Assembly: GCF_000952855.1 (NCBI RefSeq)
Contig: NZ_JSVU01000007.1
Location: 62,001 to 126,000 of the forward strand
Length of the DNA stretch: 64,000 bases
Reading direction: 5' to 3'
DNA from: Aequorivita vladivostokensis
GTDB taxonomy: Bacteria > Bacteroidota > Bacteroidia > Flavobacteriales > Flavobacteriaceae
Positions 18,186 through 29,871 of the stretch are shown here, one piece after another. The notes under the pieces were generated by a model, which had not been told where the DNA came from, searched no databases, and saw nothing but the letters and a program-made list of their open reading frames with translations. Within the stretch, counting starts at the first letter, position 1. Every line of letters begins with the position of its first letter. Position numbers and translations under genes: made by a program.

Positions 18186-18349
18186 GCCTACCGCAGGACT
18201 ACGACTTCCTAAATATAAAATAAAAAAGTAGTCGTAAATTAAAAGATTTGGCGACCCTGCCTACCGGAGGCACAACAGGCAGGCTCGCCAATATGCCAAA
18301 ACATTGGGTTTGGCACTTGCTTGCTCTATTTTATTATACCTTGTTAGGC
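18186..18349 (+). repeat. attC-like hairpin S1 (left arm degenerate)
   Basis: The right arm GCTCTATTTTATTATAC is followed by CTTGTTAGGC, whose GTTAGGC matches the integron core rule GTTRRRY exactly. The inner part has ATTTGGCGA, also found inside site S8 (25921-25930), but here it is split by a CCTGCCT palindrome. The left arm may begin at GCCTACC (18186) but pairs poorly. The right core overlaps the stop of the HigA remnant. Confidence 0.45.
18256..18287. repeat. CCTGCCT palindrome nested in site S1
   Basis: CCTGCCTACCGG and ACAGGCAGG form a stem flanked by GGCGA and TCGCC, so it opens the GGCGAC segment of the host hairpin. A sister copy is at 4554-4583, again inside another hairpin. Confidence 0.5.
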
Positions 18350-18466
18350 AACGTTTTTATCCACGTGTTGCTTTATTTCGCTCAGTTCTTTTTCTTCTTC
18401 GATATCAAAATCATTTTGAAGACCGAGCCAGAATTTTGCAGAATTCCCAAAATATTTGCTTAATCG
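18344..18466 (-). pseudogene. HigA-type antitoxin, C-terminal remnant
   Basis: A 40-codon frame without a start reads RLSKYFGNSAKFWLGLQ, then DFDIEEEKELSEIKQ, ending KNVA. This matches the C-terminal half of HigA antitoxins, whose helix-turn-helix is followed by LR-LSKYFG-S--FWL-LQ. Just upstream, TLDV occurs in another frame, consistent with a small deletion. The rest of the helix-turn-helix and any HigB toxin are gone. The stop codon overlaps the GTTAGGC core of hairpin S1. Toxin-antitoxin genes are frequent in chromosomal integron arrays, which supports that reading of the region. The family call rests on this short but characteristic stretch. Confidence 0.6.
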
Positions 18467-18521
18467 CTAACGTCAAGGGTAAGCATATTTTTGAATGTTT
18501 GCAGAATTTTTTTCAAATGTT

Positions 18522-18651
18522 GCCTAACGTTTGGTATAAACGCAGTAGCGGGATTTACGTATTAAACTTCGGTTTATAACTGACATTAAATTTATAAAAT
18601 TACTATTGGATTAAGCACTAATCCGCTATTGTGTTGATACTCGTGTTGTGA
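18522..18651 (+). repeat. attC-like hairpin S2
   Basis: Left edge GCCTAACG (a full match to RYYYAAC), left arm GTATAAACGCAGTAGCGG, right arm AATCCGCTATTGTGTTGATAC and right edge GTTGTGA. The arms pair over about 20 bases with a few bulges. It ends four bases before the stop of the exported protein at 18656. Confidence 0.6.
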
Positions 18652-18655
18652 CCAG

Positions 18656-19570
18656 TTATTCATTCTCCACTATTATTGAACCGACATATTCAAATGGAAT
18701 TTTTAAGATAATTTCAGATTCTTCTCGCCATTTTTTTTCGTTCATTCCTGAGATACTTTGTTTTATCTCGGATTCTTTAATCCAACCAGTATTTTTGTCA
18801 ATCTTGAAAGTCGAAGTCATATTTCCGATAGAGTTAAATCTTAATAATTCACCTTTTATTTTTATAAATGAGTTATTGTCATCTGAGATTGTTTTCGATT
18901 GGCTATTAATGATAGCAAAGTCTTTGTTTAGTTCCTTTAATACAAATTCATTTTCCATTGTTACGCCAGATACAGTTTCAAGTCTTATTTTATTTTTCCA
19001 CCTATCTCCTTCTTTAACAGGTGATTTTGGATAGATTGCTGTTAGCATTTCCATTGATCCTTTCATTGCTTTTTCTCCGAAAGATTGTTTTAACATATAT
19101 ATCATTCTTGCTTTTTCAAGCTTAGGTATATCAGGATTGAAACTAAATAGGTTATCAAAGATTTTCTCCATTTTGACTTCTTTAACGATTCCATATTTCA
19201 TAATAGAAATATAAAAGGGTGATTTCGTCAATTCGTTTAGAAGCAAACTAAGAATATCTGTAGAATCAACTTTTTGAGAGTTCGCTGAGATTTCATTTCC
19301 GTTAGTATTCACTTTCAAATACATTGTCAGAAATCTTACTTCTAAATGATAAACGGAATCTATTTTTTCTTTTACCAAGAAACTCATTTTACCCCCATAA
19401 GATATATCCGAAATAAATGATTCCCCGTGGAGTTCCTGAGTCATAGTAACCTGGGATTCAGTATCGTGATAATATGATTCTCCTACGGTTAAATTTAACT
19501 CTAAAACCTGTGAGAAGGAAAAGCTTATTGTAAATAGTAAAAAAGCTAATAAAAGTATAAGTTTCTTCAA
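18656..19570 (-). CDS. Exported protein of unknown function (DUF6263-like)
   Basis: A 304-residue protein if started at the TTG at 19570, which gives MKKLILLLAFLLFTISFSFS, a clean signal peptide; an ATG at 19606 would extend it into hairpin S3. The mature part has GESYYHDTESQVTMTQ near the start and YPKSPVKEGDRWKNKI in the middle, a layout I associate with DUF6263-type Bacteroidota proteins; this match is tentative. It sits alone between hairpins S2 (after its stop) and S3 (before its start), as a cassette would. AT-richer than the core genes around the region. Confidence 0.65.
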   Translation of the reverse strand: MKKLILLLAFLLFTISFSFSQVLELNLTVGESYYHDTESQVTMTQELHGESFISDISYGGKMSFLVKEKIDSVYHLEVRFLTMYLKVNTNGNEISANSQKVDSTDILSLLLNELTKSPFYISIMKYGIVKEVKMEKIFDNLFSFNPDIPKLEKARMIYMLKQSFGEKAMKGSMEMLTAIYPKSPVKEGDRWKNKIRLETVSGVTMENEFVLKELNKDFAIINSQSKTISDDNNSFIKIKGELLRFNSIGNMTSTFKIDKNTGWIKESEIKQSISGMNEKKWREESEIILKIPFEYVGSIIVENE

Positions 19571-19589
19571 ATGTATATTCTTTAATTGG

Positions 19590-19663
19590 CCATAACGGTC
19601 TCGCATAACCTTCAGTTACGGGTTAATATACGCAGACTTTTCGGTTTGGCACAGACGTTAGCA
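19590..19663 (+). repeat. attC-like hairpin S3
   Basis: Left edge CCATAACGGTCTCGCATAACC pairs with the right part GGTTTGGCACAGACGTTAGC. Edges are CATAACG and GTTAGCA. The arms match over about 17 bases with bulges. It lies 20 bases upstream of the start of the exported protein on the minus strand. Confidence 0.5.
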
Positions 19664-19712
19664 ATTCCGAATGGATTCGGACGTAGTCGAATCCGCCGTA
19701 ATTGCGGTTAGC
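19657..19712 (+). repeat. Short hairpin S4 between two GTTAGC cores
   Basis: GTTAGCAATTCCGAATGGAT and ATCCGCCGTAATTGCGG form an imperfect stem; both edges carry GTTAGC. It shares its left core with S3 and its right core with the left arm of S5. Confidence 0.45.
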
Positions 19713-19730
19713 ATCTATGAAAAAGCAGCG
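19703..19730 (+). repeat. Left arm of attC-like hairpin S5, split by IS110
   Basis: GCATCTATGAAAAAGCAGCG pairs with GCTTTTCATAGGATAC at 21124-21139. The two arms are separated by the IS110-family element, so the element lies in the loop of the hairpin. Confidence 0.5.
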
Positions 19731-19767
19731 AGTCTCGTATCTTTAAAGTTCACCAAAACAATAAGAT

Positions 19768-20817
19768 ATGAAATTAGAACCCACTGCCCAACCAAAGTTA
19801 TACATTGGCATCGACATTCACAAGCGTAGCTGGAAAGTTCATTGCGCCACCGATCTGTTTGGTGGCAAGTCATTCGCTATGCCCCCAAAGCCTGAAGTAT
19901 TATACGAGTATGTAGCCAAACATTTTCCCGACCATCAGGTTACTACAGCTTATGAAGCAGGTTGTTGCGGCTATTACGCCCACCGTAGTTTTGAGGCATA
20001 CGGCTGGCATTCCCTAGTAGTGAACCCTGCCGACATCCACCGCAAGGGAAAAGAACGTTTTACCAAGACCGATAAAATAGATGCCCAATTGATAAGTAGA
20101 GAGCTTAAGGATGGCAGACTTGAGAGTATTCACGTTCCCCATGTGGAGCGGGAGCAATTGCGCAGTCTTTTCAGAAGAAGGAACGATCTGGTTAAGGATT
20201 ACAGGCGTATCAAGAGCCTTATAAAAATGCAGTTGCTGTATTTTGGCATTGCTATTCCCGAGGAGTTTGACAATGACCATTGGAGCCACAAGTTCCGCGG
20301 TTGGGTGGACGAAGTAGTCTTTGCATATCCATCGGCGCGCGAGACGCTGGACAGCAGGATGCGGAGCTTCAGGTTCATAGACCAGGAGCTGCGCGATGTC
20401 TCCACAAAGATGCGCGCCTATTGCCGCAAGCATTACAAGAAGGATTATTATTTATTGAAAAGTATTCCGGGAATAGGCGGGATTGTGGCCTGCGGCATTA
20501 TCTGCGAGCTTGGCGATCTGCGACGCTTTAACAGCATAAAACATCTTGCGGGCTATGTTGGGCTGGCTCCGGGCATCCACCAGAGTGGCGACAACCAAAA
20601 GAGCACGGGCATTACAATGCGCGCCCATAGATTGATGCGAAGTTATTTTATAGAAGCGTCCTGGCAGGCCATCAGGACAGACCCCATAATGCAGGCCTAT
20701 TACCGCAGGCATTTGGGCAAGAACGTCAAATCAATAATAATCAAGGTGGCCCGTAAATTATTGAACAGGACCTTGGCTGTCATAAAAACAGAAACTCCTT
20801 ATGCGATAGGGCATTGA
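19768..20817 (+). CDS. IS110-family transposase (DEDD)
   Basis: A 349-residue transposase. The RuvC-like DEDD domain shows D16 (YIGIDIHKRSWKV), E63 (TAYEAGCCGYYAHR), D102 and D105 (KTDKIDAQLISREL). The C-terminal Tnp_20 domain covers about 225-320: LLKSIPGIGGIVACGI, LAGYVGLAPGIHQSGDNQK with a candidate catalytic Ser273, and TMRAHRLMRSYFIEASWQAI. Length and both domains look intact, so it may be active. Members use a structured RNA from the element's own non-coding end to choose donor and target. The gene is more GC-rich than its surroundings, a sign of recent arrival. Confidence 0.93.
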   Translation: MKLEPTAQPKLYIGIDIHKRSWKVHCATDLFGGKSFAMPPKPEVLYEYVAKHFPDHQVTTAYEAGCCGYYAHRSFEAYGWHSLVVNPADIHRKGKERFTKTDKIDAQLISRELKDGRLESIHVPHVEREQLRSLFRRRNDLVKDYRRIKSLIKMQLLYFGIAIPEEFDNDHWSHKFRGWVDEVVFAYPSARETLDSRMRSFRFIDQELRDVSTKMRAYCRKHYKKDYYLLKSIPGIGGIVACGIICELGDLRRFNSIKHLAGYVGLAPGIHQSGDNQKSTGITMRAHRLMRSYFIEASWQAIRTDPIMQAYYRRHLGKNVKSIIIKVARKLLNRTLAVIKTETPYAIGH

Positions 20818-21123
20818 ATAATAATATAAACAGATAACAAAGCTCACAAAGAAGTATTAAAAGCCTATATCACAAAACAATGTAGGTGGCTGGATTAAAT
20901 TTAGACCACATCTTTTTAGCAAGTGACCAGGTTTATTATAACTTATAATCATACAGATGCCGGTGACCGCGCTTGGACGATGGATCACATATAGGATGCG
21001 GAGCAAGTTATATGGTATTGAAATATTGATAATCCTATCGGAATTATCAACATTCCAACACCCCAAAATCATCATTATGAGATAATTAAAATAAAAATAT
21101 TATTTTTGAAGAACGGGATTAGT
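20818..21123 (+). ncRNA. Candidate guide (bridge/seek) RNA region of the IS110 element
   Basis: This non-coding 3' end holds a GC-richer stretch (20955-21005: GCCGGTGACCGCGC, GGATGCGGAGC) within AT-rich flanks. A hairpin TTGATAAT/ATTATCAA lies at 21026-21050. ATAGGAT at 20992-20998 also occurs in the right flank of the insertion (21132-21138). IS110/IS1111 elements encode their guide RNA in such regions. No covariance or loop assignment was possible here. Confidence 0.35.
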
Positions 21124-21149
21124 GCTTTTCATAGGATACAGTGTTGGCA
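21121..21149 (+). repeat. Right arm of attC-like hairpin S5
   Basis: GCTTTTCATAGGATACAG runs into the core GTTGGCA at 21143-21149. It pairs with 19711-19726 across the IS110 element. Confidence 0.5.
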
Positions 21150-21190
21150 AACGTTATTTCTTCACAAGCTTGTATTAATTGTTTCTGTTA

Positions 21191-21769
21191 TTACTTATTC
21201 ATCTGTCCTAATTTTTCAACTTTATTCAACCATTTTGCTCTAAATTCTTCTGTAGAAAGACGTATAGGTCCAATGGCTGTAATTCGCACTTTTTTTATGC
21301 CAATATAATGTAATGTTCCTTTTTTCATCGCATTGTGGCTAGGACTTCTGTAAACCAATTTGTAAAACCAAGCTGGTTGATCCATTGTGCAAATTATTCT
21401 GGCAGATTTACCTGTTAGGCATTTATCAGAAAACAATGAATTTTCTCTTTTTTTAAATGCAAATCCTGGAAGTAAAATCCGGTCTAAAAAACCTTTCATT
21501 ATTGCTGGTACAGAGCTCCACCAAACAGGATAAACCCAAACTATATGGTCTGCCCATTTTATTTTATCCTGTGCATCTAGTAAATCGGGTTCTAATTCGG
21601 TTCGTTTTCTGTAGCCAAATTCTAGGTTTGGGTTGAAGGTTAATTCTCGGATATTAATTTCTTTTATTTCAGCATTTGATTTTTCAGCACCTTTTTTATA
21701 GGCTTCTGAAAGTCCAAAACTAAAGCTTTCCTTGTCAGGATGCCCATTTATAATGAGTATTTTCTTCAT
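21191..21769 (-). CDS. NAD(P)H-dependent flavin oxidoreductase (flavodoxin-like, KefF/MdaB type)
   Basis: A 192-residue protein with the flavodoxin-like fold of NQO/KefF-type reductases: MKKILIINGHPDKESFS (FMN phosphate loop), IKWADHIVWVYPVWWSSVPA and MKGFLDRILLPGFAF, then an active-site Tyr in RSPSHNAMKKGTLHYIG. Such enzymes pass two electrons from NAD(P)H to quinones or other electrophiles through FMN. It is the last gene of a minus-strand trio with a small membrane protein (5 bp upstream) and a Crp-type regulator. The trio is flanked by hairpins S5 and S6, as one cassette. Substrate not determined. Confidence 0.87.
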   Translation of the reverse strand: MKKILIINGHPDKESFSFGLSEAYKKGAEKSNAEIKEINIRELTFNPNLEFGYRKRTELEPDLLDAQDKIKWADHIVWVYPVWWSSVPAIMKGFLDRILLPGFAFKKRENSLFSDKCLTGKSARIICTMDQPAWFYKLVYRSPSHNAMKKGTLHYIGIKKVRITAIGPIRLSTEEFRAKWLNKVEKLGQMNK

Positions 21770-21774
21770 CTATT

Positions 21775-22098
21775 TTAGAAATATTTTTTGATTTTTGATT
21801 CAAATTGTGTTCCTGATAAATTTTCTATTTTGAAGAATTTATAGAGGATAAAAGTGGTAGGAACGGTTAAAAAGAAGCTGCAAATTGCAAAAGTGGCAAT
21901 GCTACAGAGCACAGCTAAGATTTGTGAACCAAGTTCTCCCATATAATTTTCTGTGATGAAAAAAAGATAGGTAGCTTCTGAATAGTCGTAAAAGCGAACG
22001 GTGGTTTCGTAGATTAACCAAGCAGGATAAAACCATTTTCTAATAGATACCCACCATTTTCCCCAAATTGATGTTAGTTGTGTATTTTGTTCTCCCAT
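21775..22098 (-). CDS. Small membrane protein of unknown function
   Basis: A 107-residue protein with an amphipathic start (SIWGKWWVSIRKWFYPAWLI) and at least two membrane helices, around TYLFFITENYM and the segment LAVLCSIATFAICSFFL. I recognise no family. It is five bases before the flavin reductase gene and about 55 bp after the Crp-type regulator, so it is probably co-transcribed with both. It may be a membrane partner of the reductase; that is inference from position only. Confidence 0.6.
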   Translation of the reverse strand: MGEQNTQLTSIWGKWWVSIRKWFYPAWLIYETTVRFYDYSEATYLFFITENYMGELGSQILAVLCSIATFAICSFFLTVPTTFILYKFFKIENLSGTQFESKIKKYF

Positions 22099-22154
22099 TT
22101 GTAATTATTTATTGCAAAGGTCAAACTAAAGGAAGCGGTATCATTTGATATAGA

Positions 22155-22736
22155 TCAAATTCGGTTTTTGGGGTTTCTTATTCTACTCAAAGTTTCAAGC
22201 GTAATGCCTAAATAAGAAGCAATATGAGTAAGCGGAATTCTGTTTGTTATGTCAGGATAAATGGCTAAAAGGTGTTTGTATCGTTCCTCGGCTTTATTGA
22301 ACTGAATGGTATACAATCTTTCGCACAAACCTAACATAGTTTCGGTTACTACTTTGCTTATAAAACGTTCAAAATCGTGATATTTATCAGTAAGTATATC
22401 AACAGTATCTTTTGAAAACTCAATTACTGTTGAATCTTCAATGAACTCAATATAATGAGGGCTCGGCTCTTTGCTGAAAAAACTCACTACTGAAGCCATA
22501 ATCTGATTTTCAAAAGTAAACCAGTCAGAAATGTCCTTTCCGTCTTTTAGATAATAGGCTCTAGAACAACCTTGCACAATTAGATATCCTTTTTTAGAAA
22601 ATTGTCCTTCACGAACCACAATTTCCCCTTTTTTAAACGTGCTAATTTTTGAATTGGCAATAAATTCCTCTTGGCATTCAATGGATATTGGTGAATAAGT
22701 TTCTCCAATTTCATTTAAGATTTTTTCAATATTCAT
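22155..22736 (-). CDS. Crp/Fnr-family transcriptional regulator
   Basis: A 193-residue regulator with an N-terminal cyclic-nucleotide-type beta-barrel (KISTFKKGEIVVREGQFSKK, YLIVQGCSRAYYLKDGKDIS) and a C-terminal winged helix-turn-helix ending ITNRIPLTHIASYLGITLET LSRIR. No Cys cluster for an iron-sulfur site, so not Fnr-like. This small Crp type is common in Bacteroidota, often next to the gene it controls; it probably controls the reductase/membrane pair downstream. The upstream 50 bp lead straight to hairpin S6, leaving little room for other control sites. Confidence 0.87.
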   Translation of the reverse strand: MNIEKILNEIGETYSPISIECQEEFIANSKISTFKKGEIVVREGQFSKKGYLIVQGCSRAYYLKDGKDISDWFTFENQIMASVVSFFSKEPSPHYIEFIEDSTVIEFSKDTVDILTDKYHDFERFISKVVTETMLGLCERLYTIQFNKAEERYKHLLAIYPDITNRIPLTHIASYLGITLETLSRIRNPKNRI

Positions 22737-22786
22737 TTTTTATGGACTACAATTCTTTGGTTTGGAACAGAGGTTCGTTTTAATGT

Positions 22787-22862
22787 TTGCCAACGGTTTG
22801 TGTATGAGCAGTAGCGGCTTTTGCGAGTTGGCTTTGCACGAGCTATTGCTTATACACCTTGT
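22787..22862 (+). repeat. attC-like hairpin S6, cut by IS1182-type element
   Basis: Edge TGCCAACG, left arm GTGTATGAGCAGTAGC, right arm GCTATTGCTTATACAC (14 of 16 bases pair), then CTTGT. The insertion element begins right after CTTGT, where the GTTR core should follow. Confidence 0.65.
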
Positions 22863-23679
22863 GCCTGTTGCACAACCACCTCTTCAAATATAGCAAAAGG
22901 CTTGTATAAAATTGAGAAGTTTATTAATTTCATGCCTATGCAAGGCAAGAAAAACTATCAGGAAAAACTCTTCACAAGCTTTAAGCTAAGTGACAGGGTT
23001 TCAAAAGAAAATTTTTACCGACGGCTAAAAGAAGTTCTAGACCTGGACTTTCTTTACCCGCTCACCAATAAGTTCTATGGACAAAGTGGGCAAAAAAGCA
23101 TAGACCCCGTGGTCTTTTTAGGGAAAGAAAGTAACCTTCCGCAAGCAGAAACTTGAAAAAGGCACATTAAAGGATAATTATTTTACAAAACGAAGTGATT
23201 GCAAGGGATGTCCCATCAAAGAAAGCTGTATAGGTAAAAGCCACGAAAAGCGGATCAATATCACTGCTTACCGGGAAGAATATGAACGCAACATAGCGAG
23301 AATGAAAAGCCCCACTGGTCGGTATCTAAAAAGCAAACGGCAAAGCACCGTGGAGCCTGTCTTTGGAACCCTCAAGGAGTTTATGGGGCTTCGCAAGGTC
23401 AATACCATTGGCATTAAACAGGCCAACAAATGCATGCACCTCTCGGCGATGGCCTACAACCTCAAGAAATACCTCAAGTTTATCCAAAAACGCGCAAAGA
23501 GCGGGGCGGAAAGCCTTGTTTTATATTTTTTACCAAAAATAGTGCTTCAGAATGTAGCAAGGCATTTTTAAAAGCACCAAATTTGGTTCATTCTCAAGCC
23601 TGACCAAAAAAGCAAGGCCGCTTAAAACGGCTTATATTGGTTCAGGTTTAAAAAATTAAGGGGTTGTGCAACGGTTACC
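22863..23679 (+). mobile_element. IS1182-type element, copy 1, internally deleted
   Basis: Shares nearly identical ends with copy 2 (25993-27695), including GTTGCACAACC at the left and GGTTGTGCAAC at the right. An 884-bp internal stretch (26250-27133 of copy 2) is missing. Flanks are CTTGT at the left and GATGT at the right, so no clean 5-bp duplication; it may be a recombinant of two insertions. Confidence 0.85.
22932..23571 (+). pseudogene. Deleted IS1182-type transposase
   Basis: The N-terminal piece (MPMQGKKNYQEKLFTSFKL to QKSIDPVVFL) is joined at 23119/23120 to the C-terminal part. The 884-bp loss is not a multiple of three, so the frame closes at 23156. The C-terminal Cys cluster and STVEPVFGTLKEFMGL are still readable in another frame to 23571. 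The catalytic core is missing, so the copy could only move if the intact copy supplied transposase. Sequence identity with copy 2 is high, so the deletion is recent. Confidence 0.85.
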
Positions 23680-23946
23680 GATGTTGGCAGTAGTTATGAT
23701 TTAAGCCGAGATATTGCAAAAAAGCAGTTAGAATGTGAAGAAAATTGCATTAAACAAGTAATTAAACAATACACAGGTAAAGAACTCACTTTAGAAGATG
23801 CCCCAAAAGTACAGAGAGCTTTTCACATAAACGACAGTAGCAAATATATACTTGCTTATGATGGTGTTCAATTAGGTATGATTAGGTATATAAACGATGG
23901 TTGCAATTTTCGTGTAGAGTTTACGCCAAATGAATTTCAGTTTTAA
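23680..23946 (+). pseudogene. 5'-truncated small gene, unknown
   Basis: An open frame of 88 codons without a start codon begins at the right end of the deleted IS1182 copy: DVGSSYDLSRDIAKKQLEC, then QYTGKELTLEDAPKVQRAF and ends FRVEFTPNEFQF. The composition looks like a real small soluble protein. The start was probably removed when the insertion or a later rearrangement occurred. It is followed five bases later by hairpin S7, as a cassette gene would be. No family recognised. Confidence 0.5.
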
Positions 23947-23950
23947 TTAC

Positions 23951-24017
23951 TACCAACGTTTAGTATATGAAGCGTAGCGCCCGAATGGGGGCTATGATTT
24001 CATATACAGTGTTATGA
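23951..24017 (+). repeat. attC-like hairpin S7 (complete, 67 bp)
   Basis: Edge TACCAACG, left arm GTATATGAAGCGTAGCGCCC, right arm GGGGGCTATGATTTCATATAC, core GTTATGA. The two arms pair through GTATATGAA and GTAGC. This is the shortest and cleanest of the sites, placed directly after the stop of the truncated gene. Confidence 0.65.
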
Positions 24018-24100
24018 GCTTTTTTACATTCTTCATTGTCACTGGAAAATTGTCCATGCTTAAGTCTCTTATCTCCATTCCAAGGCCCCTTATTTAGTTC

Positions 24101-24108
24101 TACATTTG
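24101..24108 (+). promoter_or_regulatory. -7 element TACATTTG of the ABM-domain gene
   Basis: TACATTTG matches TAnnTTTG and lies 23 bases before the ATG at 24132. No clear -33 TTG. It means this unit carries its own promoter. Confidence 0.5.
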
Positions 24109-24131
24109 CAGTGTAACAAAAATAAGTCAAA

Positions 24132-24851
24132 ATGAAATTTAAAAGTTTAATCAAATTAAGTAGCCTAGTTCTAATTCTAGGGATAACAATTCAAACATTT
24201 TCTCAATCTAAAAAAAGTAATATTATGGACAACACAAAAAATGAAAAAATCGGATTATTAGTAATCATGAAAGCGAAAGAAGGTAAGGAGCAAGAAGTGA
24301 AAGAGTTTCTTCTAGGTGGTTTATCATTGGTAAATGCAGAACCAAAAACTGAATCTTGGTTTGCATTTCAAATAGATGAACAAACTTTCGGAATTTATGA
24401 CACATTTGAAGCTGAAGAAGGCAGACAGGCACACTTAAAAGGAGAAGTGGCAAAAGCCTTATTGGCCAATGCTGGAGGTCTTTTAGAAGGTTTTGATTCT
24501 AGCAGAGACATTAAGACCGTTGATGTTCAAGCAAGTAATCATAAAGTGGGTAATCAGAATAACGGATTGTTGGTGATTATGAAAGCCAAAGAAGGAAAGA
24601 CATCTGCAGTGGAGGATTTCTTACAAGCGGGCAAGTCATTGGTAAGTTCTGAGCCTGCAACTTTATCATGGTATGCTTTTAAAATCAATGAAGAAACCTA
24701 TGCCATTTTTGATACGTTTGCAGATGACGCTGGCAGAGATGCTCATTTGACAGGGAAAGTAGCAGCAGCGTTGATGGAGAATGCGCCTGTAATTTTGGAA
24801 GGCTTTGATGCTTCAGCAATTCAAAAAATTAACATTCTAGCTTCAAAATAA
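24132..24851 (+). CDS. Exported protein with two tandem ABM-type domains
   Basis: A 239-residue protein. The N-terminus KFKSLIKLSSLVLILGITI is a signal peptide. Two similar domains follow, about residues 40-125 and 143-238. Each has (G)LLVIMKAKEGK, then SLV-AEP--SW-AF and a C-terminal E-GRQAHLKG or AGRDAHLTG. This is the antibiotic biosynthesis monooxygenase (ABM) ferredoxin-like fold, usually a homodimer; here one chain carries both halves. Such proteins oxidise quinols or bind small aromatics. A hairpin terminator and an AraC-type regulator follow on the same strand, within the unit between hairpins S7 and S8. Confidence 0.82.
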   Translation: MKFKSLIKLSSLVLILGITIQTFSQSKKSNIMDNTKNEKIGLLVIMKAKEGKEQEVKEFLLGGLSLVNAEPKTESWFAFQIDEQTFGIYDTFEAEEGRQAHLKGEVAKALLANAGGLLEGFDSSRDIKTVDVQASNHKVGNQNNGLLVIMKAKEGKTSAVEDFLQAGKSLVSSEPATLSWYAFKINEETYAIFDTFADDAGRDAHLTGKVAAALMENAPVILEGFDASAIQKINILASK

Positions 24852-24865
24852 ATATTTGATTTAAG

Positions 24866-24896
24866 AAAGGAGTGCTTTTGGTACTCCTTTTTTTTT
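24866..24896 (+). terminator. Terminator after the ABM-domain gene
   Basis: AAAGGAGT and ACTCCTTT pair around a short loop, followed by eight T residues. It lies between the ABM gene and the AraC-type gene, so the regulator is made by readthrough or from its own start. Confidence 0.75.
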
Positions 24897-24929
24897 AAAA
24901 ATTTGAATAAGTTAAAAAATAAATTTAGT

Positions 24930-25793
24930 ATGGCCCAAATAATTATAGACAAACAAAACGGGGAACTTGCGTTTAGATTAGAAGAGTTCAACGACCTAAG
25001 CCAGTTTGATCATTTACAAAGAAGAAATTATTATTCTATCGTTTTGTTATGTGGAATTAGCTATGAACTAAGCGTTGATTTTCAAAGTTTTAAATTGCAA
25101 GGAAATCAAATGATTTGTTTGGCTCCGTATCAACCTTTCATGATACGTTCTGAAGAAAAGTGTCAGGGTTATTTATTGAATTTTCATCCCGATTTTTTTT
25201 GTACATATAGACATCAAAACGAAATAGAGACCGAGGGATTCCTTTTTAATAATTTCCATGGTTTACCCTATTTTACTGTAAACGAGCAAAGCCTATTTCT
25301 TAATTTGATTGATCAAATTTCGAAAGAGATGGACAAAGACTCAATCGCTCAGCATGAAGTTCTTGTGGCATATTTAAAAGTGTTTTTAATAGAAGCGGTC
25401 AGACATAAGAAACAATTTGATCAACAATTAACTCCCAGATTGTCAGATTCAAAAACAGAAATTTTACAAAATTTAGTCGATGCAATTGAGAGTAATTATT
25501 GCAAATTCCATTCTCCCCAAGAATACGCAGATGAACTATGTGTAAGTACTAAAACTTTAGCCAGTATCGTCAAGAAATATCTCAATCAAACGACTTCATC
25601 CTTAATTTCAAATAGGATCATTATTGAGGCGAAACGAGAACTTTATCTAACTTCTAAACCAGTGAAACAAGTTGCTGCTTTTTTAGGTTTTGACGATGAA
25701 TTCTATTTTAGTCGTTTTTTTAAAAAGAAGGTAGGAGTATCGCCTGATATTTATCGTAAGACAGTTGGTTTTGCTAAATTAGAGTCAAATTAA
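24930..25793 (+). CDS. AraC-family transcriptional regulator
   Basis: A 287-residue regulator from the ATG at 24930 (MAQIIIDKQNGELAF); a TTG nine codons upstream is less likely. The N-terminal part (about 20-150) is a cupin-like sensor. The C-terminal AraC domain has two helix-turn-helix units: YADELCVSTKTLASIVKKYL and KQVAAFLGFDDEFYFSRFF, ending KKVGVSPDIYRK. Bacteroidota proteins of this type usually control the neighbouring gene, here the ABM-domain protein upstream. It is followed directly by hairpin S8. Confidence 0.88.
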   Translation: MAQIIIDKQNGELAFRLEEFNDLSQFDHLQRRNYYSIVLLCGISYELSVDFQSFKLQGNQMICLAPYQPFMIRSEEKCQGYLLNFHPDFFCTYRHQNEIETEGFLFNNFHGLPYFTVNEQSLFLNLIDQISKEMDKDSIAQHEVLVAYLKVFLIEAVRHKKQFDQQLTPRLSDSKTEILQNLVDAIESNYCKFHSPQEYADELCVSTKTLASIVKKYLNQTTSSLISNRIIIEAKRELYLTSKPVKQVAAFLGFDDEFYFSRFFKKKVGVSPDIYRKTVGFAKLESN

Positions 25794-25796
25794 TTA

Positions 25797-25992
25797 CTCA
25801 CAACGGCTCCGTATATGAAAAGTAGCGCTGAAAATAAGCGGTTTCTTTTCGGATGAAACACAAGCCGAATTTTTAAATTTTACTATTTATTTTTTACTTG
25901 GAAAATCGTCAAATTTAAAAATTTGGCGACTTTCCTGAAATGCCCAAGACTACGTGTTAACAACGACTTGCGCTATTTTTTATATACATTGT
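25797..25992 (+). repeat. attC-like hairpin S8, cut by IS1182-type element
   Basis: Edge TCACAACG, left arm GTATATGAAAAGTAGCGC, right arm GCGCTATTTTTTATATAC (16 of 18 bases pair), then ATTGT. The core resumes across the insertion as GTTATCT at 27699-27705. The inner part carries ATTTGGCGAC, shared with S1. Confidence 0.65.
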
Positions 25993-27695
25993 GCCTGTTG
26001 CACAACCACCTCTTCAAATATAGCAAAAGGCTTGTATAAAATTGAGAAGTTTATTAATTTCATGCCTATGCAAGGCAAGAAAAACTATCAGGAAAAACTC
26101 TTCACAAGCTTTAAGCTAAGCGACAGGGGTTCAAAAGAAAATTTTTACCGACGGCTAAAAGAAGTTCTAGACCTGGACTTTCTTTACCCGCTCACCAATA
26201 AGTTCTATGGACAAAGTGGGCAAAAGAGCATAGACCCCGTGGTCTTTTTTAAGATATGCCTGGTGGGCTATCTGGAAAACATAACCACAGACCGTGGCCT
26301 AATGGATCACTGCAGTATGCGCATGGACATCCTTTATTTTCTGGACTATGATATTGACGAGCCTTTACCTTGGCACAGCACCATCAGCCGCACACGGCAA
26401 CTTTTCCCGGAAGATATTTTTGAAGAAGTCTTTACCCGTGTTTTGAAATTGTGCATACAAGCCGGTCTGGTAAGCGGCCATACCCAGGCCATCGATTCAG
26501 CTCCTGTAAAGGCCAATGCCTCGATGGACAGTCTTGAGATCAAAGTGCCGGCAGATGAACTTGAAGAACACCTTTCCAAAGTGCGCGTACAGAGCAGCAG
26601 GGACAGAAAGGCCAAAGAGAACAAAGCGCCTAAAGAACAACAAGAAATAACGGCCAGTAAAAAAGAATTACAGGAGATCAAGAGCCGTAACAAAAGATGG
26701 AGCGAAGACCAGGATATGCGCCCGGGAGCCAAGAACAAAGGCAGCCGTTACACCAGCAACAAAACCCATTATAGTCCTACCGATCCCGATTCCAGAATAA
26801 GTGTCAAGCCCGGGAAAGCAAGAAAGCTCAACTACCTGTGCAACATAAGCGTAGATACCGGGGGCCACGTGATTACCGATGTGCAGGCTTACCACGCCGA
26901 TAAGAAAGACAACCAGTATTTGCAGGACACCGTGGCAAGACTTAACAGGCGATTGAGAAAGGAGGGAATGATTTGGGAGCACCTCTTGGCAGACACCGGC
27001 TACAGCAGTGGGGAGAACTATGCCTATCTGGAAGCCAAGGGCATTAAAAGCTACATTCCGCCCCACGGAACTTACAAAGGCGGCCCCGAAGACTTTAAAT
27101 ATATAAAAGAAGGTAACTACTGGCTGTGCCCACAGGGAAAGAAAGTAACCTTCCGCAAGCAGAAACTTGAAAAAGGCACATTAAAGGATAATTATTTTAC
27201 AAAACGAAGTGATTGCAAGGGATGTCCCATCAAAGAAAGCTGTATAGGTAAAAGCCACGAGAAGCGGATCAATATCACTGCTTACCGGGAAGAATATGAA
27301 CGCAACATAGCGAGAATAAAAAGCCCCACTGGTCGGTATCTAAAAAGCAAACGGCAAAGCACCGTGGAGCCTGTCTTTGGAACCCTCAAGGAGTTTATGG
27401 GGCTTCGCAAGGTCAATACCATTGGCATCAAACAGGCCAACAAATGCATGCACCTCTCGGCAATGGCCTACAACCTCAAGAAATACCTCAAGTTCGTCCA
27501 AAAACGCGCAAAGAGCGGGGCGGAAAGCCTTTTCTTGTGTTTTTTGCCAAAAACAGTGCTCCAGAATGTAGCATGGCATTTTTTAAGAGGACCAAATCTG
27601 GTTCCTACTCAAGCCTGACCAAAAAAGCAAGGCCGCTTAAAACCGCTTATATTGGTTCAGATCTAAAAAAATTAAGGGGTTGTGCAACGGTTACC
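25993..27695 (+). mobile_element. IS1182-type insertion sequence, copy 2, complete
   Basis: 1703 bp, flanked by a 5-bp direct repeat ATTGT (25988-25992 and 27696-27700). Ends share the 11-bp inverted repeat GTTGCACAACC/GGTTGTGCAAC. It carries one transposase gene. Insertion is in the right arm of hairpin S8, at the same position as copy 1 in hairpin S6. Confidence 0.85.
26062..27618 (+). CDS. IS1182-type transposase
   Basis: A 518-residue DDE transposase from the ATG at 26062; a longer frame starts outside the element and is not credible. Early part: FYRRLKEVLDLDFLYPL and FFKICLVGYLENITTDR, the usual N-terminal DUF772-like helix. Catalytic core: GHTQAIDSAPVKANAS (first Asp), LADTGYSSGENYAYL (second Asp) and the late STVEPVFGTLKEFMGLRK (Glu). 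A Cys cluster (SDCKGCPIKESCIG) sits before the last part. The frame is intact, so the copy may still be mobile. It is far more GC-rich than its flanks. Confidence 0.92.
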   Translation: MPMQGKKNYQEKLFTSFKLSDRGSKENFYRRLKEVLDLDFLYPLTNKFYGQSGQKSIDPVVFFKICLVGYLENITTDRGLMDHCSMRMDILYFLDYDIDEPLPWHSTISRTRQLFPEDIFEEVFTRVLKLCIQAGLVSGHTQAIDSAPVKANASMDSLEIKVPADELEEHLSKVRVQSSRDRKAKENKAPKEQQEITASKKELQEIKSRNKRWSEDQDMRPGAKNKGSRYTSNKTHYSPTDPDSRISVKPGKARKLNYLCNISVDTGGHVITDVQAYHADKKDNQYLQDTVARLNRRLRKEGMIWEHLLADTGYSSGENYAYLEAKGIKSYIPPHGTYKGGPEDFKYIKEGNYWLCPQGKKVTFRKQKLEKGTLKDNYFTKRSDCKGCPIKESCIGKSHEKRINITAYREEYERNIARIKSPTGRYLKSKRQSTVEPVFGTLKEFMGLRKVNTIGIKQANKCMHLSAMAYNLKKYLKFVQKRAKSGAESLFLCFLPKTVLQNVAWHFLRGPNLVPTQA

Positions 27696-27698
27696 ATT

Positions 27699-27705
27699 GT
27701 TATCT
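27699..27705 (+). repeat. Core of hairpin S8 after the insertion
   Basis: GTTATCT follows ATTGT from the target duplication. It restores the edge of S8. The same GTTATCTCTT string precedes the gene start at 28360 on the opposite strand. Confidence 0.5.
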
Positions 27706-27709
27706 CTTG

Positions 27710-28360
27710 TTATTTTTCGGTCAGTTGGTTAATTGGATAAACTAATTTTTCATTTTTAATATAGTTTTCTGCCTTTAAATCATTAATTGATATAATTAGT
27801 TCCGTATTCTTATAAGAATCCAGCTTAATGGTTTTAATATGGTTATTATACTTTAAAACCAATGGACTATCAATTGTTTCAATAGTAAATTCCCAATTTT
27901 CCTCAAATGGCGGAACTAAACAAATTAATTTATTATTTTGATATACGGACAAATCATAAAATGTTTCGAAATTCTTACTAACCTTAATTATGCTTTTTTG
28001 TTCATTTGTTTCTTCTTCTAAAGTTCGTATGACTAATCTTTCGATAGGATTTTCATCCGTAAGATTTAGAACTAAATTTTGTGCGTCATATTCATAAAAA
28101 CCATAACTCTGGTGAATCACAGCTGAAATTCGAACTCCGCATATTTCCCTTCCATCCTCCGTTGTTCCAATTATATTCGTACTATCAGGGTAGTTTACTT
28201 TTTCAATTACTTCAAATAAAACTCTATTATTTGGCAATAGTTTAATTGTTTTTCCATCACGAGTTTCCAGAATTTTGATTTCAGCAGAATCTTGACTGAA
28301 GTTGTTTTGGCTACAAATCAATCCTATTACTAAAATTATATTCCCAAGGTGCTTTTTCAT
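27710..28360 (-). CDS. Exported protein of unknown function
   Basis: A 216-residue protein from the ATG at 28360 (MKKHLGNIILVIGLICSQ), which gives a signal peptide; an upstream start at 28414 would run through hairpin S9. The mature part is beta-rich and acidic (LETRDGKTIKLLPNNRVLFE, GREICGVRISAVIHQSYGFY). No named family recognised. Its start lies seven bases after a GTTATCT core on its own strand, the spacing seen for integron cassette genes. It is AT-rich compared with the core genes of the window. Confidence 0.65.
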   Translation of the reverse strand: MKKHLGNIILVIGLICSQNNFSQDSAEIKILETRDGKTIKLLPNNRVLFEVIEKVNYPDSTNIIGTTEDGREICGVRISAVIHQSYGFYEYDAQNLVLNLTDENPIERLVIRTLEEETNEQKSIIKVSKNFETFYDLSVYQNNKLICLVPPFEENWEFTIETIDSPLVLKYNNHIKTIKLDSYKNTELIISINDLKAENYIKNEKLVYPINQLTEK

Positions 28361-28366
28361 AATAAG

Positions 28367-28437
28367 AGATAACATGTGTATATACGACATGCCTATTGCT
28401 GCTATCCCGCACATGTGCGCATGTCATGTGTTCTGTG
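28367..28437 (-). repeat. attC-like hairpin S9, opposite orientation
   Basis: On the minus strand the right arm GCAATAGGCATGTCGTATA is followed by CACATGTTATCT. GACATGC/GCATGTC pair, with a GCACATGTGC palindrome in the loop. It overlaps the stop codon of the recombinase remnant. It is the only site of the set that faces the other way. Confidence 0.5.
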
Positions 28438-28905
28438 ATTTATCAAATGTAACCGATTCATACAAAGTATCCAAAGGACTCTTTAAAGTTTTGTTGTTAA
28501 TGCCTATAACTCTGGTGTAAACCTCAGTTGTTTTTGTGCTGGCGTGGCCTAGGGCACTTTGTATGTAGCGGATGTTCACCCCGCGCTCCATAAGGTGTGT
28601 GGCAAAACTGTGCCGAAGCGTGTGCGGCGTGCTCCACGGATTTGAATTGGTGGCTTTCACCGCACTTCTAAAAATACTCTGTATACTTTTGGAAGAATAC
28701 TGCCCCCCATCCTGGCCTTCAAACAACCAGTAAGCGGGTTTAAATTGCTTGTAATATTGTCGCAAGAGTACCAGGAGCACAGGGCTCAATACCGTATGCC
28801 GGTCGCGCTTGCCCTTACTGTCTTTTATAAAAATGTAGCCATCATCCCTTCAAATATCCCTTCCCTTAAACGCAAAACATCTCCCCCTCGCAACCTCCTA
28901 TACTG
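28424..28905 (-). pseudogene. Tyrosine recombinase (XerD/IntI-like), decayed
   Basis: The C-terminal half is open: [37 protein letters not shown], then the catalytic [20 protein letters not shown] and the Tyr in [10 protein letters not shown], ending LKSPLDTL. Further 5' the patch-I box survives in another frame as RRLRGGDVLRLREG, so a frameshift lies near 28840-28865. The N-terminal SAM-like domain is lost; tandem ATTTGGAATTTGG repeats begin at the break. HxxR, H and Tyr motifs are intact. The end SPLD-L is seen in IntI and related Bacteroidota recombinases, but the long IntI-specific insertion before HxxR is absent. Confidence 0.78.
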
Positions 28906-28924
28906 TATTGAAATATTGAGTATT

Positions 28925-29078
28925 TAAAATTATTTGTGATTTGGAATTTGTGATTTGGAATTTGGAATTTGGAATTTGGAATTTGGGATTTGGGATTTGG
29001 GATTTGGGATTGGAATTTGGAATTTGGGGATTTGGGATTTGGAATTTGTGATTTGGAATTTGTGATTTGTAATTTAAA
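28925..29078. repeat. ATTTGGAATTTGG tandem repeat, about 150 bp
   Basis: Seven-base units (GGAATTT, GGGATTT, GTGATTT) are repeated about twenty times with small changes, between the broken recombinase and the next gene. Its translated frame (QIPNSKFQIPN) is a by-product of the repeat, not a protein. A smaller array of the same unit is at 46218-46292. Confidence 0.8.
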
Positions 29079-29088
29079 AATCACCCCT

Positions 29089-29745
29089 TCAACTCATATA
29101 TACCCCTAAAACCTCAATCCCAACCGCATCCTTGCCAAAATTTGCATATTCCTCTTCCCCCAGGACCTCCATAAACCGTAAACCCAAAACAGGTATATAC
29201 TGTAGTCCTTCTTCTTTTGTGGGTCCCCCCTCAAGTGTTTGCACTAATCTTTCAGACCGATCCTCCTTGGATCTCCTAAGGATAGGAGCCTCATAAGTAA
29301 CAAAGGTATTGGTAGCTGCATCGTAAACAAGCAGGCAATAGAATAGCTCAAAGTGGGTGGCGCCTTTGGGAAATTTGGCAGCGGCAGGATTAAATCTTGC
29401 CCACTCCAATGAAAAATCCAAGGCGTCGATCCTCGGATTTCCAAAATGCTGCCGTATGCCTGCCTTCGGCGTAAATACGAATTCCCGTAGTAACTGCTGT
29501 CCCTTTAGCGTTTTTAACCCTTGCCCTACATTTCTGGATCCGGGGACGGAATCTTTATCAAGCGCCTTGATTTTCAGGAATAATTGCATCAGGCGTTGGT
29601 GCAGGCTGCCGTCATTTAAATGGCAAAGAATAGGATGTAGCGAAATCTTGAATTCCTTGACAAATACGCTACACAATGTTAATTCTTCGCTGTTCTTGTA
29701 AATCCGGGGATTTTTTTTATTATTTTCGTAGTTAAATCCTCCCAT
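29089..29745 (-). CDS. Conserved protein of unknown function
   Basis: A 218-residue protein from the ATG at 29745 (MGGFNYENNKKNPRIYKNSE). It has no signal peptide or membrane segment. Readable stretches are FKISLHPILCHLNDGSLHQR, then ALDKDSVPGSRNVGQGLKTL and LDFSLEWARFNPAAAKFPKG. I have a sense of similar orphans in Flavobacteriaceae but recall no name. Upstream, within 90 bp, six phased GCCGAC repeats occur and could control it. The 3' end borders the ATTTGG repeat. Cytoplasmic by default. Confidence 0.65.
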   Translation of the reverse strand: MGGFNYENNKKNPRIYKNSEELTLCSVFVKEFKISLHPILCHLNDGSLHQRLMQLFLKIKALDKDSVPGSRNVGQGLKTLKGQQLLREFVFTPKAGIRQHFGNPRIDALDFSLEWARFNPAAAKFPKGATHFELFYCLLVYDAATNTFVTYEAPILRRSKEDRSERLVQTLEGGPTKEEGLQYIPVLGLRFMEVLGEEEYANFGKDAVGIEVLGVYMS

Positions 29746-29810
29746 AATTACCACTTGTTGGTTTCTAATATAAATTTAGAAACATTTTCTCTCAAAAACA
29801 AGTGTTTCAA

Positions 29811-29871
29811 GCCGACACCATGCCGACTGCAAGCCGACCGTAAGCCGACTTATGCCGACTCCATGCCGACT
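29811..29871. promoter_or_regulatory. Six phased GCCGAC direct repeats
   Basis: GCCGAC occurs six times in about 60 bp with centre spacing of 10 or 11 bases, separated by A/T-rich fillers (accat, tgcaa, cgtaa, ttat, tccat). That spacing is one helical turn, so all copies face the same side of the DNA. It lies 65 bp upstream of the gene that starts at 29745. Confidence 0.55.

What the first reader, a model, noticed from the sequence alone, without database searches (positions are those of the whole stretch)
18186..28437. Degraded integron-like cassette array built on attC-like hairpins in a Flavobacteriaceae genome
Nine imperfect hairpins (S1-S9) delimit almost every unit between the P-type ATPase and a tyrosine recombinase remnant. 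Their left arms share TATRAA-n-GTAGCG; left edges carry AACG and right edges GTTR. S1 has GTTAGGC and S2 has GCCTAAC, the exact integron cores GTTRRRY and RYYYAAC. Eight of nine face the same way. Units carry one to three promiscuous genes (HigA remnant, reductase/Crp trio, ABM/AraC pair, orphans), and starts lie 7-20 bases from a core, as in integron cassettes. That these sites recombine is inference; such hairpins in Bacteroidota have, as far as I know, not been worked out.
Basis: partly seen in the sequence, partly recalled or inferred. Interest (0 to 1): 0.85.

Follow-up and report, generated by a model that had tools for sequence, protein, structure and literature searches.

The report
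Decayed integron of an unrecognised class
This stretch looks like the worn-out remains of a gene-collecting device (an integron) of a kind that is widespread in Bacteroidota bacteria but falls outside the usual definition, because its recombinase lacks a part thought essential and its recombination sites look different.

Summary
The hairpins are real attC-type recombination sites, and the region is a decayed integron read on the minus strand: integrase remnant (28424-28789), attI (28371-28423), then cassettes. A covariance model built without window sites finds five sites (18526-25993), all on the minus strand. Ends are complementary across each unit, not across the hairpin: 106 of 170 units exact over 6 nt, against 0.7% of mismatched pairs and 3 of 212 hairpins. 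In 18 of 20 other attI copies in the genus the sequence is conserved to GTT and a different cassette follows. Sites occur in 177 of 199 genomes of the family, 14 of 14 named Bacteroidota and 0 of 24 others. The array integrases keep the catalytic residues, lack the I2 insertion that defines IntI (gap 91-96 against 133 residues) and carry an extra N-terminal domain; sites pair better on the bottom strand through A.C/G.T asymmetry. Here the integrase is broken; a same-genus relative has an intact one. Exchange at GTT is strongly supported by comparison; single-strand recombination is inferred. A new variant of a known kind: integrons were reported in Bacteroidota before, but my searches found no description of this class.

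The parts
28424..28789 (-). integrase remnant: C-terminal 121 codons of a tyrosine recombinase with HxLRH, LGH, Y and SPLDTL; N-terminal part absent
   Evidence: Pfam Phage_integrase 4e-21; 28371-28865 is 91% identical to same-genus G027:C10, where the frame is an intact 384 aa; own genome has no match to the N-terminal domain
28371..28423 (-). attI: conserved element between integrase stop and first cassette, ending ...GTATATACACATGTT
   Evidence: conserved to GTT in 19 of 21 genus loci (the window's own copy included), then different sequence
27699..28373 (-). first cassette (U7), gene 27710-28360 without Pfam or NCBIfam match at E 0.001; ends match 7 of 7
25993..27696 (+). IS1182-family insertion sequence (transposase frame 25954-27618), at the 3-nt-spacer side of the next attC; borders approximate
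   Evidence: NF033551 350 bits; repeats; flanks
25802..25993 (-). attC-type site, cut by IS1182
   Evidence: model R1, E 8e-7 (only)
   Evidence: 97% identical unit in G027:C9 with a different neighbour beyond AAC
23955..24013 (-). attC-type site, short (59 nt)
   Evidence: model R1, E 5e-6
23683..23957 (-). small cassette (U5); ends match 6 of 7
22863..23682 (+). second, internally deleted IS1182 copy, at the same position of its attC as the other copy; borders approximate
   Evidence: flanks
22792..22863 (-). attC-type site, cut by IS1182
   Evidence: model R1, E 4e-9
21143..22794 (-). cassette (U4): cNMP-binding (Crp-like) regulator (22155-22736), 107-aa frame without match (21775-22098), flavodoxin-fold reductase (21191-21769); ends match 7 of 7
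19768..20817 (+). IS110-family transposase lying between two truncated attC sites
   Evidence: NF033542 218 bits
19594..19709 (-). attC-type site truncated at the IS110 element
   Evidence: model R1, E 1e-4
18645..19596 (-). cassette (U2) with a DUF6263 protein (frame 18656-19606, -); ends match 5 of 7
   Evidence: PF19777 1e-41
18526..18647 (-). attC-type site, complete
   Evidence: model R1, E 1.5e-11
18343..18528 (-). smallest unit (U1, 186 nt); ends match 7 of 7
18318..18345 (-). remnant of a further attC (one arm and core)

Best explanation
This is a decayed integron of a class found across Bacteroidota. When intact, a tyrosine recombinase with an extra N-terminal domain stands at the head of the array, in most cases transcribed towards attI. 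It joins circular cassettes to attI, or to attC sites in the array, by exchange at the GTT core on the R' (5-6-nt spacer) side. Each cassette brings its own attC: R''AAC - 3 nt - L'' ... L' - 5/6 nt - GTT R'. Because exchange happens at GTT, the first bases of a cassette pair with the last bases before its own attC. attC is inferred to react as a folded bottom strand, whose stem is almost fully paired through G.T wobbles while the top strand has A.C mismatches at fixed places. In this genome the integrase has lost its N-terminal part, an IS110 and two IS1182 elements have cut several sites, and no intact integrase of this type was found. Shown by comparison: sites, unit-end complementarity, core-exact junctions, attI, linkage of array and integrase. 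Inferred: catalysis by this integrase, circular intermediate, single-strand substrate, strand choice.
For: Window: five model sites; six units whose ends match at 36 of 42 positions, reached by 2 of 720 permutations, off-pair mean 2.17 of 7. 35 loci, the window included: 106 of 170 units exact over 6 nt, against 0.70% of 27,148 cross-locus pairs and 3 of 212 hairpins; longest ORF canonical in 98, opposite in 13, none in 6 of 117 units; median unit 778 bp. Core-exact junctions: two in G027; 50 of 149 end points against 3; a 916-nt cassette 99.9% identical between Winogradskyella ursingii and G101 with different flanks. attI: 19 of 21 loci (window included) reach GTT, 71% identity before and 40% after. 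Covariation: 149 double-change cells against 49.5 shuffled and 18-29 slid. Specificity: 14 of 14 Bacteroidota (two of them with one marginal site), 0 of 24 others. Linkage: of 80 integrase loci 16 have sites at E<1e-3, 15 of these downstream on the same strand; N-terminal domain in 114 of 199 genomes of the family, 113 of the 114 with sites, against 64 of 85 without it. R, K, H, R, H, Y (catalytic by general knowledge) invariant in 13 relatives. Strand asymmetry: stem cells paired 97.4% on the bottom, 84.9% on the top strand; bottom more stable in 117 of 131 sites.
Against: No recombination was observed. 64 of 170 adjacent pairs do not match exactly (missed sites or mixed units; not separated). 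64 genomes have sites without a detected integrase domain. 27 of the 43 loci with a Bacteroidota title show no site in the flank held, some being short contigs. end points come mostly from duplicates within single genomes; of 24 ends of 12 cross-genome stretches only 2 lie within 6 nt of a core, a third at 10 nt. 174 of 296 genomes of the phylum have no match, among them at least 7 of one genus of the family. One of five covariation measures, the number of further pair types, is reached by 41 of 500 shuffles. Part of the strand asymmetry (stem position 12) was imposed by the expression that collected the sites; position 7 was not. The integrase lacks the IntI-specific domain said to be needed for IntI activity. 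Integrons or intI have been listed for Bacteroidota before (PMC2426708, PMC8618304, PMC9668308, passages); whether any of those are this class I could not check.
Confidence: 0.9

Rival explanations
1. The hairpins are REP- or MITE-like intergenic repeats, spread by a transposase, that merely separate genes.
For: Hairpin repeats occur between genes and in many copies per genome, up to 57.
Against: Unit-end complementarity, core-exact junctions, uniform orientation relative to integrase and genes and linkage to an integrase are not expected of REPs.
Confidence: 0.03
2. The array is a fragment of a classical IntI integron (CALIN) that came in by transfer from another group.
For: General layout, attI, GTT core and cassette size are those of integrons; an integrase running towards attI is also known from Treponema (PMC3607928, passages).
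Against: The intact relatives of the remnant lack I2 and fall below the TIGR02249 cut-off (three tested: 191-197 bits, cut-off 265; three true IntI 433-455); the sites are absent from 24 non-Bacteroidota genomes and present in 177 of 199 genomes of the family.
Confidence: 0.04
3. The system acts on double-stranded palindromic sites like a Xer or phage-type recombinase, and the hairpins are not folded during recombination.
For: The integrase resembles XerA (best PDB match 4A8E) and lacks I2; its N-terminal extra domain could be an arm-binding domain as in other mobile recombinases (PMC8138268, passages).
Against: The stem covaries while its sequence changes, and the asymmetry favours one strand, which a double-stranded site does not need.
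Confidence: 0.25

Closest known systems
Chromosomal integrons of the IntI class (Vibrio and others; general knowledge and PMC4792948, passages)
   Same: GTT core exchange, cassettes of about 0.5-1.9 kb, cassette ends complementary, attI, palindromic variable attC
   Different: integrase lacks I2 and has an extra N-terminal domain; attC stem arms mostly of equal length with fixed A.C/G.T positions; core GTTR; end pairing reaches about 14 nt with a wobble at position 11
Treponema chromosomal integrons (PMC3607928, passages read)
   Same: integrase transcribed towards attI, in the direction of the cassettes
   Different: its integrase and attC were not compared here
CALIN elements (PMC9024848, passages read)
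   Same: cluster of attC-type sites without a working integrase in this genome
   Different: sites defined by my own model; IntegronFinder was not available to run
XerA/XerC-type recombinases
   Same: closest solved structures by sequence (4A8E, 5HXY) and NCBIfam NF040815 (196-227 bits, cut-off 220)
   Different: N-terminal extra domain, linkage to cassette arrays
attC-like stem-loops behind aph(3')-IVb in Riemerella anatipestifer (PMC13148043, section 11 read)
   Same: order Flavobacteriales; homology-independent, site-specific gain of a gene with a 140-bp 3' stretch likened to attC
   Different: single gene; section 11 names no integrase or array for it; I did not compare the sequences

Membership tests
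integron (IntI class) | IntI tyrosine recombinase with the additional I2 domain | tested here: not met
   box I to HxxR gap 91-92 (96 in L098) in 15 array-linked integrases against 133 in three true IntI; two-piece match to 2A3V with a 19 against 62 residue gap; TIGR02249 191-197 bits in three against cut-off 265, none over it in 20 genomes
integron (IntI class) | catalytic RKHRH-Y of a tyrosine recombinase | tested here: met
   invariant in 13 relatives; the window copy keeps only the C-terminal part
integron (IntI class) | attI next to the integrase at which cassettes enter | tested here: met
   19 of 21 loci, window included, conserved to GTT and different after it; 9 of the 21 have an integrase motif upstream
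integron (IntI class) | attC with core GTTRRRY / RYYYAAC | tested here: not met
   AAC and GTT at the two ends in 202 of 212 sites; consensus only GTTR; exact GTTRRRY not counted, present at 18343
integron (IntI class) | conserved palindromic fold with variable sequence | tested here: met
   149 double-change cells against 49.5 shuffled
integron (IntI class) | extrahelical bases that set strand choice | tested here: inconclusive
   aligned stem arms of equal length in most of 50 sites, some with an extra base; asymmetry is by A.C/G.T
integron (IntI class) | cassette ends complementary and junctions at the core | tested here: met
integron (IntI class) | cassette promoter Pc | not tested
   no promoter analysis was made
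integron (IntI class) | integrase-catalysed attC x attI recombination | not testable with these tools
   needs an assay
CALIN | two or more attC without an integrase | tested here: met
   five sites in the window, no integrase N-terminal domain found in the genome; with my model, not IntegronFinder's
REP/MITE repeat | self-complementary repeat independent of the unit between copies | tested here: not met

The most novel reading that the evidence does not exclude
Bacteroidota hold a second class of integrons, separate from the IntI class: an integrase without I2 and with its own N-terminal domain recombines attC hairpins whose strand is chosen by fixed A.C (top) / G.T (bottom) positions instead of extrahelical bases. 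It is spread over the phylum and may be an original carrier of mobile genes such as tet(X), beside which a truncated relative ('xerD', TnpF) lies. It would be either a living pre-I2 stage or an independent invention of the integron.
Probability: 0.6. Interest if true: 0.94.

Novelty: new variant of a known kind. Interest (0 to 1): 0.88.

Why it matters
Integrons are recognised by IntI with its additional domain and by attC models from other phyla. IntegronFinder 2.0 reports, for Bacteroidetes proper, one complete integron (Salinibacter ruber) after only In0 before (PMC9024848, passages), and the attC models of PMC8352920 cover 11 taxa without Bacteroidota (passages). If arrays like these are real integrons, a large family (sites in 177 of 199 sampled genomes) has gone largely uncounted. 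An integrase without I2 makes a standing question testable: whether I2 was needed to begin recombining folded single strands (PMC7790495, passages). It may also explain homology-independent gene gain in Riemerella (PMC13148043, section 11) and the 'xerD' beside tet(X) (PMC7473080, passages).

Tried and rejected
REP/MITE repeat: rejected. Rfam: no family reached its threshold in the window; in three array loci the only matches were a tRNA and Flavo-1. Reading on the plus strand: rejected, because the hairpin travels with the unit on its plus-strand right and attI and integrase lie at 28.4 kb. GTTRRRY as consensus: rejected. Regular-expression sites were replaced by the covariance model; the first unit-end count with them was 39 of 87 against 0.6%, same hairpin 1 of 111. 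For one search I used 52 of the 56 rows and 160 of the 179 rows; dropped were 16 rows that are the same places read on the other strand and 7 weak rows with E above 1e-3. One search placed one unit border a base off (U1); one search repeats the test with the right coordinate. Tree of 85 integrases: array-linked integrases (15) and IntI (3) lie apart, IntI clade 100/100, but the deep branches are weak (75/96), so independent origin is not shown. Counts are lower bounds (17 and 11 candidates scored per genome), and E-values of the model are rough by the tool's own words. The cross-table of integrase and sites compares the listings by eye. Structure prediction could not be run, so the N-terminal domain stays without a fold; one integrase scanned with Pfam shows no family over its N-terminal 90 residues.
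Full report
What is there. The window is G000:C7:62001-126000. Its 'family f1' in the tools contains the genome of Algibacter onchidii (G145 and G486 show the same sites at the same places), so it is Flavobacteriaceae. A pattern for the hairpin arm has 5 forward and 0 reverse matches in the whole genome, 4 of the 5 here. A covariance model (R1) built from 50 sites of other genomes, none from the window, finds 18526-18647, 19594-19709, 22792-22863 and 23955-24013 on the minus strand; with all filters off nothing else in the 64 kb is below E 0.5 except two of these sites read on the other strand. With default filters 25802-25993 is added (E 8e-7). In the whole genome, sites at E<0.01 also lie on contigs C2 (two), C13, C16 and C20.

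The integron signature. In an integron, exchange at G^TT makes the first bases of a cassette complementary to the last bases before its own attC, while the two sides of one hairpin come from different cassettes. In the window six units can be scored: 7, 5, 7, 6, 4 and 7 of 7 positions after GTT match; 2 of 720 permutations do as well, and the two hairpins whose sides can both be read match at 1 and 2 of 7. In 35 loci, the window included, 212 sites give 170 adjacent units: 106 match exactly over 6 nt, against 0.70% of 27,148 pairs from different loci and 3 of 212 hairpins. In 117 units with at least 5 of 6 matches the pairing goes on to about position 14 (67% at position 10, 82-95% at 12-14) with one systematic exception, position 11, A at the start against G at the end (96 of 117), a G.T wobble on one strand. 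In these units the longest ORF lies in the reading direction in 98, against it in 13 and is absent in 6; median length 778 bp; start codon median 31 nt after GTT, stop median 17 nt before the site.

Junctions move at the core. Same-genus genome G027 has the attI side at 91% identity, but its first cassette differs from the window's from the core on; its copy of the ABM/AraC unit (97%) keeps the hairpin of 23955-24013 and has a different neighbour beyond the core. Window 18333-19708 is absent from G027, with the IS110 element at the border. Of 28 genomes of the genus, 19 hold matches to attI plus integrase end; of 21 loci examined, the window's own included, 19 run conserved to GTT (mean pairwise identity 71% over 33 nt) and then differ (40% over 30 nt); 2 lack GTT. 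Among array loci, 149 interior end points of shared stretches (300 nt or more, 85% or more) were scored: 50 within 6 nt of an R' core, 3 of an R'' core, 0.8% expected. Most come from duplicates within single genomes: of 24 ends of 12 cross-genome stretches 2 lie within 6 nt of a core and one at 10 nt. The clearest case is a 916-nt cassette 99.9% identical between Winogradskyella ursingii (L092) and G101 with different flanks. These results also show which hairpin goes with which unit: the canonical reading is the minus strand.

The fold. On the 50-site alignment the named stem has 149 double-change cells against 49.5 in shuffles and 18-29 in slid versions; the count of further pair types is less telling (41 of 500 shuffles reach it). 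Two stem positions carry A.C on the canonical top strand (39 of 50 and 50 of 50), so stem cells are paired to 84.9% on the top and 97.4% on the bottom strand. By folding energy the bottom strand is more stable in 117 of 131 distinct sites. The second of the two positions was partly imposed by the expression that collected the sites; the first was not. In IntI integrons extrahelical bases set strand choice (PMC4792948, passages).

The integrase. TIGR02249 matches lie beside arrays in the six genomes whose arrays I hold at length (G101, G163, G104, G184, G087, G150). In 80 loci fetched by the integrase alignment (43 with a Bacteroidota title), 16 have sites at E<1e-3; in 15 all such sites lie downstream on the same strand. 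The exceptions are L111, with sites upstream on the other strand, and G184: there the integrase runs away from the array, as in classical integrons, and these two integrases are sisters in the tree (100/99). The N-terminal domain profile finds 114 of 199 genomes of the family, usually once; 113 of the 114 have sites, against 64 of the 85 without it (genome size may confound this). The window's own genome has none, so this integron is decayed. Residues R, K, H, R, H and Y of the active site are invariant in 13 relatives. The IntI insertion is missing: box I to HxxR is 91-92 residues (96 in L098) in 15 array-linked integrases against 133 in three true IntI found in the same scan; these score 433-455 bits with TIGR02249 against 191-197 for three array integrases (cut-off 265). 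A solved IntI (2A3V) aligns in two pieces with a 19 against 62 residue gap. In a tree of 85 rows the array-linked integrases and IntI lie apart, but deep support is weak.

Extent. R1 at E<=0.001: 177 of 199 genomes of the family, 122 of 296 of the phylum, 14 of 14 named Bacteroidota (Rufibacter and Adhaeribacter with one marginal site each) and 0 of 24 named others. The named Bacteroidota were chosen because they hold an integrase relative. Site counts include Flavobacteriaceae bacterium S0862 57, Zunongwangia mangrovi 55, Winogradskyella ursingii 33, Algibacter onchidii 32 and Seonamhaeicola aphaedonensis 29. On a plasmid of Chryseobacterium sp. SNU WT5 the integrase is followed by three sites.

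Comparison with the known. The order integrase-attI-cassettes with the integrase running towards attI is that of Treponema (PMC3607928, passages). I2 is described as not found in any other protein and its removal as abolishing activity (PMC7790495, passages); an integron survey selected on this domain (PMC2426708, passages). A survey of tyrosine recombinases notes that the insertion is not fully conserved in its integron-like group (PMC8138268, passages), so relatives without it may have been seen there. Integrons or intI have been listed for Bacteroidota or the Bacteroidetes/Chlorobi group (PMC2426708, PMC8618304, PMC9668308, PMC9024848; passages). Ten searches of the open library showed no description of this class in their listings; the nearest is the attC-like stem-loop behind aph(3')-IVb in Riemerella anatipestifer (PMC13148043, section 11). 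Preprints and most subscription papers are not in that library.

How sure. That this is a decayed cassette array recombined at GTT: about 0.9. That its integrase is the broken one beside it: about 0.9. That it recombines folded bottom strands: about 0.65, inferred from asymmetry and covariation. That the class arose apart from IntI: open.

Noticed in passing
22850-22870 with 23680, and 25985-26000 with 27697: Two IS1182-family copies sit at the same position of two different attC-type sites, at the 3-nt-spacer side (flanks): the element seems to aim at attC sites, as IS1111-attC elements are said to (recalled).
   Followed up: partly
19709-20950: An IS110-family element lies between truncated attC sites; in same-genus G027 it has the same right neighbours but a different left border.
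   Followed up: partly
28904-29099: An ATTTGGR tandem repeat lies where the N-terminal half of the integrase gene should be.
   Followed up: no
L191-L194 and L196-L203: Twelve copies of the attI element without an integrase motif within 1.5 kb upstream, followed by different sequences; one is G000:C14:39360. More than one attI-like entry point per genome would be unusual.
   Followed up: partly
L206 and L207, 4052-4717: The truncated recombinase (TnpF; 'xerD' in papers) upstream of tet(X3) on an Acinetobacter indicus plasmid and on pHH1107 is 52.5% identical to the integrase of Seonamhaeicola over residues 143-376. A GTTATGTGCC core lies just before tet(X3); no model site was found there. PMC7473080 (passages) asks what this xerD does.
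   Followed up: partly
G184:C4:194000-213900 (L044) and L111: Two arrays in which the integrase points away from the array, as in classical integrons; the two integrases are sisters in the tree.
   Followed up: partly
29808-29871: Repeats of about 11 bp of the type CAAGCCGACTN.
   Followed up: no
L177 (G027:C13:39624-40118): G027 has a second copy of the integrase end, 94% identical to the window, in a short frame (141 aa), with its own attI and a different cassette.
   Followed up: no
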